Part shown: positions 53,601-56,271 of the stretch, one piece after another
Numbering within the stretch: the first letter of the stretch is position 1
Layout of the letters: each line of letters starts with the position of its first letter
Assembly (NCBI RefSeq): GCF_964355755.1
Contig: NC_092675.1
Coordinates: 30,776,912 to 30,840,911, forward strand
Source of the DNA: Antedon mediterranea
Lineage: Eukaryota > Echinodermata > Crinoidea > Comatulida > Antedonidae
Direction: 5' to 3'
DNA length: 64,000 nt
The notes under the pieces: model-generated
Told to the model about the DNA's origin: nothing
The model's input: only the letters and a program-made list of their open reading frames with translations
Databases searched by the model: none
Made by a program: the position numbers and the translations under genes

Positions 53601-56271
53601 GGAGAGAGTGTGCTGAAAAAGTGTGTATAGTATTTTCCCAACCAGTAATGTATACATTGGGGGGAAAAGGAATCTTTGTGTAACAATCCTGCCTATGGGC
53701 TTGCACATTGTTATCATCACTGTTATAATCTATCATCTGACTTATCCACCATCATTTACTTCACATGTTCTATGTGATGACCCACATTATAACCGTATTA
53801 GGTTACACATGAATGATAAATGAATAATATATATTTGACATCTTAGGAATGGGATGGATTGGTGAGGATAGCGTTTGTGAGGAAAAACAAGACTTTAATG
53901 GCATCATTTAAGTGAGTGCTATATTTTAATTTTCTTTCATTGTGTAAAGCTTGGTCTACACTATCAAACTTTATATGACAAAAAATGTGATGTGCCCATA
54001 TATAGACATGATGATGTCATATCACTACCATATTTGGGCATATCACTACCATACTTTTTTTCAAACAAGTTGATAGTGTAGACAGAGCTTTAAGAGAATA
54101 ATAATGTTACCAATGTGATGAAGGTTTTATGGGACTAGTGCGAACAGTGTGGGACATGGAAAACACTAGATAACAACTCATTGTTATTAATTTCAGGACA
54201 AAATCTGTACTTGAAATGCTTGAAAAGAACTACAGAATTCATTGCTCTATGAACAACATTGTGAGTATATACAACATAAGTACTGTATATGATTAAAAAT
54301 CAAAGAGCTGCATAGGCAGAGTAGATAGAAAAAAGCAAACTCTAAAAACTGCCTCAATATAAATGTATTAACACTACATGTTTCAGTCATAGCTCATCAT
54401 CAGGTGCCTCAATATAATGTATTAACACTACATGTTTCAGGCATAGCTCATCATCAGGTGCCTCAATATAAATGTATTAACACTACATGTTTCAGGCATA
54501 GCTCATCATCAGGTGCCTCAATATAAATGTATTAACACTACATGTTTCAGGCATAGCTCATCATCAGGTGCCTCAATATAAATGTATTAACACTACATGT
54601 TTCAGGCATAGCTCATCATCAGGTGCCTCAATATAAATGTATTAACACTACACGTTTCAGGCATAGCTCATCATCAGGTGCCTCAATATAAATGTATTAA
54701 CACTACATGTTTCAGGCATAGCTCATCATCAGGTGCCTCAATATAAATGTATTAACACTACATGTTTCAGGCATAGCTCATAATCAGGTGCCTCAATATA
54801 AATGTATTAACACTACATGTTTCAGGCATAGCTCATCATCAGGTGCCTCAATATAAATGTATTAACACTACATGTTTCAGGCATAGCTCATCATCAGGTG
54901 CCTCAATATAAATGTATTAACACTACATGTTTCAGGCATAGCTCATCATCAGGTGCCTCAATATAAATGTATTAACACTACATGTTTCAGGCATAGCTCA
55001 TCATCAGGTGCCTCAATATAAATGTATTAACACTACACGTTTCAGGCATAGCTCATCATCAGGTGCCTCAATATAAATGTATTAACACTACATGTTTCAG
55101 GCATAGCTCATCATCAGGTGCCTCAATATAAATGTATTAACACTACATGTTTCAGGCATAGCTCATAATCAGGTGCCTCAATATAAATGTATTAACACTA
55201 CATGTTTCAGTCATAGCTCATCATCAGGTGCCTCAATATAAATGTATTAACACTACATGTTTCAGTCATAGCTCATCATCAGGTGCCTCAATATAAATGT
55301 ATTAACACTACATGTTTCAGGCATAGCTCATCATCAGGTGCCTCAATATAAATGTATTAACACTACATGTTTCAGTCATAGCTCATCATCAGGTGCCTCA
55401 ATATAAATGTATTAACACTACATGTTTCAGTCATAGCTCATCATCAGGTGCCTCAATATAAATGTATTAACACTACATGTTTCAGGCATAGCTCATCATC
55501 AGGTGCCTCAATATAAATGTATTAACACTACATGTTTCAGTCATAGCTCATCATCATGTCCCTTATAATAAACATAAGTACATTATATTGTTTTAGTAAT
55601 GTGTAGTTATTTTATGTATTTTTTTTTTACAGAAAATTGAAGATAATCTAAATATGAAGGAAAAGGTGTCTGATTTACTAACAAAGAATTCATTTGATAA
55701 AATGAGAGCCAGGTTAATGGATATAGACGATTTCTTACGGTAAGATTTTATTTCTAATTATCAAACTTGTATTTGATCACAAACTTTGTTGACTTTCACA
55801 CTTTTGAAATTGATAACTCTCCCATACCAGAACATCTAATGTTGCTAGCAGCCTATACAATGAGATTATATTAAATATTAGGTTGCTTTTGATTTGTATC
55901 CATATAAAAATTAAAAGACAAAATGTTAATGACACATGAGTAAGTGGCCAAGCAGTTAAGACAGTGGAACCGTAATTACGTAGCCATAACATCGGCATGG
56001 GTTCAAGGCTCACTCACTCAATGTTTCTGGTGGTAGAACAAGTCTTCGCAGATAAGGACTATAAACCGTAGGTCCAGTGTACACATCTAGACACTTTAAG
56101 AAACTAGTACATCTTTTGAGACAAGTAGGGTGTACCCCGGTGTACTAGTACATCACAGCCACTGATCATAACTGAGCACTCTGGGATATTAGGCTAAATA
56201 AATAATAACAAGCATTCCTTATTTTCAGGTTACTGCAACTTTTCAATTCAGAAGGAATCCACTTTTCATGA
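50603..56271 (+). CDS. DIMT1: 18S rRNA N6,N6-dimethyladenosine transferase DIMT1
   Basis: KsgA/Dim1-family methylase that dimethylates two adjacent adenosines in the 3' hairpin of 18S rRNA and is needed for pre-rRNA processing in the nucleolus. Coding exons: 50603-50660, 51215-51288, 51470-51556, 51920-51981, 52362-52505, 52777-52900, 53242-53334, 53847-53911, 54197-54260, 55633-55739, 56229-56271; total 306 codons plus stop (human about 313). A Lys-rich N-terminus leads to [10 protein letters not shown], the SAM motif EVGPGTGN at 55-62, ELDPRL at 79-83, GDVLKTDLP, and the catalytic NLPY at 121-124. [11 protein letters not shown] and [12 protein letters not shown] follow, as in the family. 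Intron 9 is filled by a 1.2-kb hammerhead-like minisatellite. Confidence 0.97.
51613..51720 (-). ncRNA. Dispersed repeat with hammerhead-like core (second copy)
   Basis: Relative of 6256-6346 in DIMT1 intron 3. On the minus strand: CTGAGGA, one base, stem GATCAA with TTGATT (loop AGTATA), then GAAAC. The stem differs from the other copy at two positions yet still pairs. Further on is a GTTCT/AGAAC hairpin and the shared TATACGTGGTGTAC tail. Confidence 0.4.
53945..54092. mobile_element. Short TIR MITE, family 1 (copy 6)
   Basis: TAAAGCTTGGTCTACACTAT at the left and GATAGTGTAGACAGAGCTTT at the right are inverted. The flanking TA is compatible with a TA target. Lies in DIMT1 intron 8. Confidence 0.8.
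54351..55558. repeat. 55-bp minisatellite x 22 with hammerhead-like core
   Basis: Units begin GCCTCAATATAAATG and end CATAGCTCATCATCAGGT, with few substitutions, so the array is young. The minus-strand unit contains CCTGATGA, a weak hairpin GAGC-TAT-GCCT, GAAAC, AT and GTA, in hammerhead order. It fills most of DIMT1 intron 9. Function unknown. Confidence 0.95.
55935..56205 (+). mobile_element. tRNA-derived SINE
   Basis: A-box-like AGTGGCCAAGCAGTTAAGAC (about 55943-55962) and B-box GGGTTCAAGGC (about 55999-56009) are spaced as in a Pol III promoter. A tRNA-unrelated body and an A/T-rich end (AAATAAATAATAAC) follow. Lies in DIMT1 intron 10. Part of its body matches, in reverse, sequence near 2715-2755. 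Confidence 0.65.

What the first reader, a model, noticed from the sequence alone, without database searches (positions are those of the whole stretch)
54351..55558. Hammerhead-like motif tandemly repeated 22 times in a DIMT1 intron
Seen: on the minus strand each 55-bp unit reads GGCAC, then CTGATGA (hammerhead box 1), one base, a weak hairpin GAGC-TAT-GCCT, then GAAAC (box 2), AT, GTA, then GTGTT. GUGUU can pair with GGCAC (three Watson-Crick and two G-U pairs) exactly where helix I of a hammerhead would be, with GUA as the cleavage triplet. Helix III would be two pairs with a 2-nt loop, the form reported for newt satellite hammerheads that work as dimers; tandem repetition would suit that. 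Against it: helix II is poor and there is one extra base after box 1. Known: hammerheads occur in satellites and Penelope-like elements. Inference: the array descends from such an element and may or may not still cleave.
Basis: partly seen in the sequence, partly recalled or inferred. Interest (0 to 1): 0.65.

Follow-up and report, generated by a model that had tools for sequence, protein, structure and literature searches.

The report
Decayed retroelement ribozyme, tandemly repeated
A self-cutting RNA motif carried by an old Penelope-like jumping gene landed in an intron of the DIMT1 gene, lost one of its stems and was then copied 22 times in a row, so it is a real hammerhead relic but almost certainly no longer a working one.

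Summary
A 22-unit, 55-bp array (54350-55563) lies in a DIMT1 intron (54261-55632). Its minus strand carries hammerhead (HHR) boxes 1 and 2. The unit is a copy of the HHR segment of a dispersed Penelope-like element (PLE; RT fused to GIY-YIG endonuclease), whose intact copies sit ~230 bp after the PLE stop codon. The parental motif CAC-CTGATGA-T-GGGC-TAT-GCCC-GAAA-CATGT-C has 180 genome matches (reversed control 0), and PLE relatives carry HHRs with different but fully paired helices. The "extra base" after box 1 occurs in intact copies too, so it is no argument against. What is broken is helix II: GAGC/GCCT or GAGC/GACT in every unit. This lesion is found only here and in one other copy, so amplification most likely followed decay, and the array probably never worked as a set of ribozymes. 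HHR polarity is antisense to DIMT1. The array junction exists nowhere else in the genome. Rfam finds nothing here, but it also misses intact PLE HHRs, so its silence proves nothing. Minisatellite growth inside a dead PLE fragment; moderate interest, mostly for the roughly 1,000 HHR-type motifs in this genome.

The parts
54350..55563 (-). 22-copy 55-bp tandem array; each unit = degenerate PLE hammerhead plus the 3' part of its pLTR segment
   Evidence: TRF; unit list; blastn of an intact PLE pLTR matches every unit at 82-86%
54287..54406 (-). last array unit plus ~60 bp of unrepeated PLE 3' end (GAGGCAGTTTT...TCTATCTACTCTGCCTATGCAGCTCTTTGATT)
   Evidence: DNA search of the genome: many dispersed copies align over 110-120 bp through the array's end
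55510..55564 (-). unit 1: 5'-truncated hammerhead, C3 mutated (ATGATGA), helix II GAGC/GACT; start of the PLE fragment
   Evidence: no PLE match upstream of 55564
55455..55509 (-). unit 2, example of the majority unit: GGCAC / CTGATGA / T / GAGC-TAT-GCCT / GAAA / CATGT / A^ / GTGTT
54795..55179 (-). units 8-14, a 7-unit block carrying CTGATTA and ACGTGT variants
54410..54794 (-). units 15-21, duplicate of the 7-unit block (same variants at the same places; unit 21 has lost one T)
54261..55632 (+). DIMT1 intron (donor GTGAGT, acceptor TTTTTTTTTTACAG), phase 0, holding the array
   Evidence: splice sites and joined reading frame MNNI|KIED
55633..55740 (+). DIMT1 near-C-terminal exon ([36 protein letters not shown])
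   Evidence: frame read directly; upstream exons match RrnaAD and solved DIMT1-type structures 1zq9 and 6w6c

Best explanation
A Penelope-like retroelement with a minimal type I hammerhead in its 3' pseudo-LTR left a 5'-truncated insertion, antisense, in a DIMT1 intron. The single hammerhead then decayed (helix II GGGC/GCCC became GAGC/GCCT; the C-to-T is a CpG change), and a 55-bp piece of the dead fragment was duplicated, across a short microhomology (CA), into a minisatellite. The minisatellite grew further by unequal exchange or slippage, including one 7-unit block duplication. In the living parent element the motif probably works like other PLE hammerheads: boxes 1 and 2 form the core, helix II closes with a UAU loop, and helix III is a palindrome (ACAUGU) with at most a 2-nt loop, so that two motifs in one transcript probably pair as a dimer and cut after GUC. 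Shown: origin from the PLE. Strongly indicated: decay before amplification. Inferred: lack of cleavage by the present array, and dimer action of the parent (by analogy with newt).
For: Dispersed copies continue past the array's 3' end over 110-120 bp. Intact copies follow an ORF with RVT_1 (E 1.1e-6) then a GIY-YIG match (E 0.007), sometimes as tandem ORF-pLTR units (L041). Parental motif: 180 exact genome matches, 0 in the reversed control. Relatives keep paired helices with changed letters: L085 GACC/GGUU, AGUACU, GUAC/GUAC; family 2 GGGC/GCCC with a 7-nt loop; family 3 an 11-bp helix II. The descriptor found 20 matches against 0.04 per shuffle. Helix II energy is -4.6 kcal/mol in the parent, +2.4 and +7.0 in array units. 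GAGC is found only in this array and one other copy; the nearest subfamily has GGGC. The junction TATTGAGGCACCTGATGA matches with 0-1 mismatch only here. Literature: PLE hammerheads are minimal (PMC6155905, PMC7229834); C3 and G8 are needed for cleavage in a PLE hammerhead (PMC11167929).
Against: Nineteen of 22 units keep both catalytic boxes, GUA is a permitted triplet and ACAUGU is mostly intact, so weak cleavage of an antisense transcript cannot be excluded. Concerted evolution could in principle have spread the helix II changes after amplification. Both end units carry GACT, which the simplest growth order does not explain.
Confidence: 0.88

Rival explanations
1. Live tandem hammerheads: transcribed from the minus strand, neighbouring units pair through ACAUGU palindromes as double hammerheads and cut the transcript into 55-nt monomers (retrozyme-like).
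For: 19 of 22 units keep both boxes; helix III palindrome and helix I (3 WC + 2 GU) kept in most units; permitted GUA triplet. Newt hammerheads with weak helix III act as dimers (PMC6155905).
Against: Helix II is unstable in all units (+2.4 or +7.0 kcal/mol). In the majority unit a competing hairpin AGGCA/UGCCU dominates the predicted fold. HHR polarity is antisense to DIMT1 and no transcript is known. A better-formed PLE hammerhead (PAc) needed its protein to cleave in vitro (PMC11167929).
Confidence: 0.07
2. Chance resemblance of an ordinary minisatellite to a hammerhead.
For: No Rfam hammerhead hit at any threshold tried.
Against: Homology to a motif with 180 genome matches tied to a PLE ORF; other PLE families have hammerheads with compensatory stem changes; shuffles give 0.04 matches. 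Rfam misses intact copies as well.
Confidence: 0.02
3. A metazoan non-LTR retrozyme locus (tandem hammerhead repeats propagating as circular RNA).
For: Tandem type I HHR-like units.
Against: Unit is 55 bp rather than 150-450 bp (PMC7229834); array junction is unique in the genome; flank continues into a PLE 3' end; helix II broken.
Confidence: 0.03

Closest known systems
Hammerhead ribozymes of Penelope-like elements (Cervera and De la Pena 2014, cited in PMC6155905 and PMC6431247; tested example PAc, PMC11167929)
   Same: Position in the pseudo-LTR of an RT/GIY-YIG element; boxes 1 and 2; helices I and II (parent); helix III minimal or absent
   Different: The window copy is a tandem 55-bp array with broken helix II and no ORF. 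Both the array and its parent have one extra base between A9 and helix II
Newt / amphibian satellite hammerheads (PMC7229834, PMC6155905)
   Same: Very short helix III built on a palindrome, suited to dimers; tandem repeats
   Different: Amphibian units are ~330-350 bp, numerous and active; this array is at a single locus, 55 bp, and probably inactive
Metazoan non-LTR retrozymes (PMC7229834)
   Same: Tandem type I HHR units
   Different: Unit length, lack of dispersal, PLE flank, no intact ribozyme
Viroid hammerhead with an extra core nucleotide (De la Pena and Flores 2001, listed in the references of PMC6155905)
   Same: One extra residue in the core; from memory it lies between A9 and helix II (chrysanthemum chlorotic mottle viroid)
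   Different: Unrelated viroid; only a precedent that an extra base is tolerated

Membership tests
Type I hammerhead ribozyme (array units) | Box 1 CUGANGA | tested here: met
   19 of 22 units; C3 or G8 lost in units 1, 8, 15
Type I hammerhead ribozyme (array units) | Box 2 GAAA joined to helix III | tested here: met
   22 of 22 units
Type I hammerhead ribozyme (array units) | Stable helix II closing the core | tested here: not met
   GAGC/GCCU +2.4, GAGC/GACU +7.0 kcal/mol, against -4.6 for the parent GGGC/GCCC
Type I hammerhead ribozyme (array units) | Helix I around the core, NUH cleavage site | tested here: met
   CAC/GUG plus two G-U pairs, GUA triplet
Type I hammerhead ribozyme (array units) | Self-cleavage | not testable with these tools
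   needs an in vitro assay
PLE hammerhead (dispersed parent copies) | Boxes, paired helix II, NUH, next to an RT + GIY-YIG ORF | tested here: met
PLE hammerhead (dispersed parent copies) | Covariation of helix II across families | tested here: met
   GGGC/GCCC versus GACC/GGUU (L085): two pairs changed on both sides, same loop; family 3 has 11 pairs
Penelope-like element (array locus itself) | RT-GIY-YIG ORF | tested here: not met
   tblastn of the PLE protein finds nothing in the window; only the 3' pLTR piece remains
Rfam Hammerhead_1 (RF00163) | Match to the covariance model | tested here: inconclusive
   No hit to the array, but none to intact PLE copies either
Metazoan non-LTR retrozyme | 150-450 bp units, several loci, functional type I HHR | tested here: not met
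   55 bp, single locus, helix II broken

The most novel reading that the evidence does not exclude
Antisense transcripts of the DIMT1 intron fold as a chain of double hammerheads through the ACAUGU palindromes and self-process into 55-nt RNAs, which would be an unusually short-unit natural hammerhead array.
Probability: 0.04. Interest if true: 0.65.

Novelty: new member of a known kind. Interest (0 to 1): 0.33.

Why it matters
It shows how a hammerhead-like minisatellite can arise with no ribozyme selection: a PLE remnant decays first and is amplified afterwards. So tandem hammerhead boxes in a genome are not by themselves evidence of an active ribozyme satellite. More useful is the by-product. 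This genome has roughly 1,000 copies of hammerhead-type motifs in several families, and the standard Rfam models did not report any of the copies scanned here. In the families tied to PLE ORFs the helix III segment is self-complementary, which makes the dimer model of PLE hammerheads directly testable. The extra base after A9 is a shared trait of intact copies, not damage.

Tried and rejected
Rfam at gathering threshold on the window, and at E<=10 on the array: only C/D snoRNA-like chance matches (TGATGA and CTGA boxes), rejected because they score far below their cut-offs. RF00163 over the whole genome: nothing, and nothing in the 14 control genomes, so uninformative. Pfam on the endonuclease half alone: nothing; the longer ORF gives RVT_1 and a weak GIY-YIG match. 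PDB sequence search with the PLE protein: no hit. A pattern for UAU-loop hammerheads with other stems found only three places, one of them (C11:1836512) a decayed copy of the same family. Cervera and De la Pena 2014 is not held, so its details are taken from papers that cite it. L088 minus 702 (CTGACGA...GATCT-AATA-AGATC) fits helices II and III but not helix I, and is not counted as evidence.

Full report
OBSERVATION. Tandem Repeats Finder gives one array, 54350-55563, period 55, 22.1 copies, 98% matches. Read on the minus strand the majority unit is GAGGCAC CTGATGA T GAGC TAT GCCT GAAA CATGT A GTGTT AATACATTTATATT. Box 2 is intact in 22 of 22 units. Box 1 is intact in 19; unit 1 has lost C3 and units 8 and 15 have lost G8. 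Helix II reads GAGC/GCCT in 16 units and GAGC/GACT in 6. Units 8-14 and 15-21 carry the same two private variants at the same places, so a 7-unit block was duplicated.

GENE CONTEXT. The array lies in an intron of DIMT1, bounded by GTGAGT at 54261 and TTTTTTTTTTACAG ending at 55632; the frame joins as MNNI|KIED. Upstream exons match Pfam RrnaAD, and the exon pieces together match solved DIMT1-type dimethyladenosine transferases. DIMT1 is on the + strand, so its pre-mRNA holds the complement of the hammerhead strand. The DIMT1 transcript itself cannot form this ribozyme.

PARENT ELEMENT. A DNA search of the 354-Mb assembly shows that the unit is one piece of a dispersed repeat. With the array's 3' flank included, many copies align over 110-120 bp through the array's end, to about 54287. 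Fetched copies read TTTTCAC CTGATGA T GGGC TAT GCCC GAAA CATGT C GTTAAAA. They lie about 230 bp after the stop codon of an ORF with reverse-transcriptase motifs (RVT_1, E 1.1e-6) followed by a GIY-YIG endonuclease motif (E 0.007). One locus (L041) has two such ORFs in tandem, each followed by the motif (one of the two motifs with a small deletion after the helix III palindrome). Together this is the layout of a Penelope-like element as described in PMC11167929. Both Pfam scores are under the curated cut-offs; the assignment rests on the order RT then GIY-YIG in one frame, the motifs read directly (FTMDVTALYTSIP, YIDDCVGV, LVYCISCTKCNMLYIGETKRRLGDRF), and the tandem pLTR layout.

IS THE PARENTAL MOTIF A HAMMERHEAD? 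(a) The motif with free helix II letters has 180 exact matches genome-wide and none in the reversed control. (b) More distant PLEs in the same genome carry hammerheads with different letters but full pairing. Relative L085 (45% identical endonuclease) has CAGTAC CTGATGA T GACC TAT GGTT GAAA GTACT A GTAC. Family 2 has TTGCA CTGATGA A GGGC TAGTGTT GCCC GAAA GCT C TGC. Family 3 has TTTCAC CTGAAGA and an 11-bp helix II, then GAAA CAAATTTGT A GTGATT; it lies near PLE sequence but its own ORF was not identified. (c) A descriptor asking for helix II >= 4 pairs, a self-complementary helix III and an NUH site found 20 matches in 94 kb (both strands) against 0.04 per shuffle; most of the 20 are copies of the same few families, so the number of independent cases is about four. 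(d) Families 2 and 3 have 732 and 80 exact copies. In each case the stretch from A15.1 to U16.1 is a palindrome (ACAUGU, AGUACU, AGCU, ACAAAUUUGU), which cannot make a proper monomer helix III in the short cases but can pair with a second copy, as in newt (PMC6155905, PMC7229834). Family 1, L085 and family 2 also share one extra base between box 1 and helix II, so that base is ancestral. Published work reports minimal hammerheads of this kind in PLEs (PMC6155905, PMC7229834) and protein-assisted cleavage, dependent on C3 and G8, for one of them (PMC11167929).

WHY RFAM IS SILENT. Rfam reports no hammerhead for the window, for the array at E<=10, or for L071, which holds an intact parental copy (also E<=10). 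It is equally silent on loci holding intact families 2, 3 and L085 (E<=1) and on other family 1 copies at gathering threshold.

STATE OF THE ARRAY. Helix II in the parent scores -4.6 kcal/mol; the array versions score +2.4 (A.C mismatch and G.U) and +7.0. In the majority unit a hairpin AGGCA/UGCCU competes with the hammerhead fold. GAGC occurs only in this array and in one other copy (C2:37300023, L014), while the nearest subfamily (GTTGTGTTAATA: C5:5346704, C6:24912055, C5:19895598) keeps GGGC. All 22 units share the lesion. The simplest order is insertion, loss of helix II, then amplification. The C-to-T in GCCC|GAAA to GCCT|GAAA is a CpG change. The repeat junction TATTGAGGCACCTGATGA is found with 0 or 1 mismatch only in this array, so the array is a local event, not a dispersed satellite. 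The joint GAGG-CA-CCTG has CA in common between the two ends (GAGGCAGTTTT and CACCTG), which fits a microhomology duplication; that step is inferred.

CONCLUSION. Shown: the array, its place and polarity, its descent from a PLE pLTR hammerhead, the intact parent copies, and the broken helix II. Inferred: decay before amplification, absence of cleavage today, and dimer action of the parent. The finding is a good catch of a real ribozyme relic, but of a known kind.

Noticed in passing
window 51707 (minus strand) and 6340 (minus strand): Two copies of another hammerhead-like dispersed repeat, CTGAGGA-N-GATCAA-AGNATA-TTGATC-GAAAC, with a 6-bp helix II; 159 matches genome-wide, 0 in the reversed control. 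The first lies in another DIMT1 intron. Helix I is not evident and the parent element was not identified.
   Followed up: partly
G000, families 1-3 (L041, L073, L080): About 990 matches to three hammerhead families (180 + 732 + 80), none reported by Rfam in the loci scanned. Helix III segments are all palindromes of 4-10 nt.
   Followed up: partly
L011 2145-2337, L012 1793-1967, L013 1504-1775: Pairs of family 1 hammerhead copies in inverted arrangement around a short spacer; this looks like inverted pseudo-LTR ends of PLE insertions.
   Followed up: no
window 54356-54410 and 55510-55564: Both end units of the array carry GACT while most inner units carry GCCT (the state closer to the parent). 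The growth order that would give this is not clear.
   Followed up: no
window 45497-45896 and 15982-16413: Other clean minisatellites in the window (22 bp x 18, partly palindromic; 49 bp x 8.8), with no hammerhead core by the descriptor scan.
   Followed up: no
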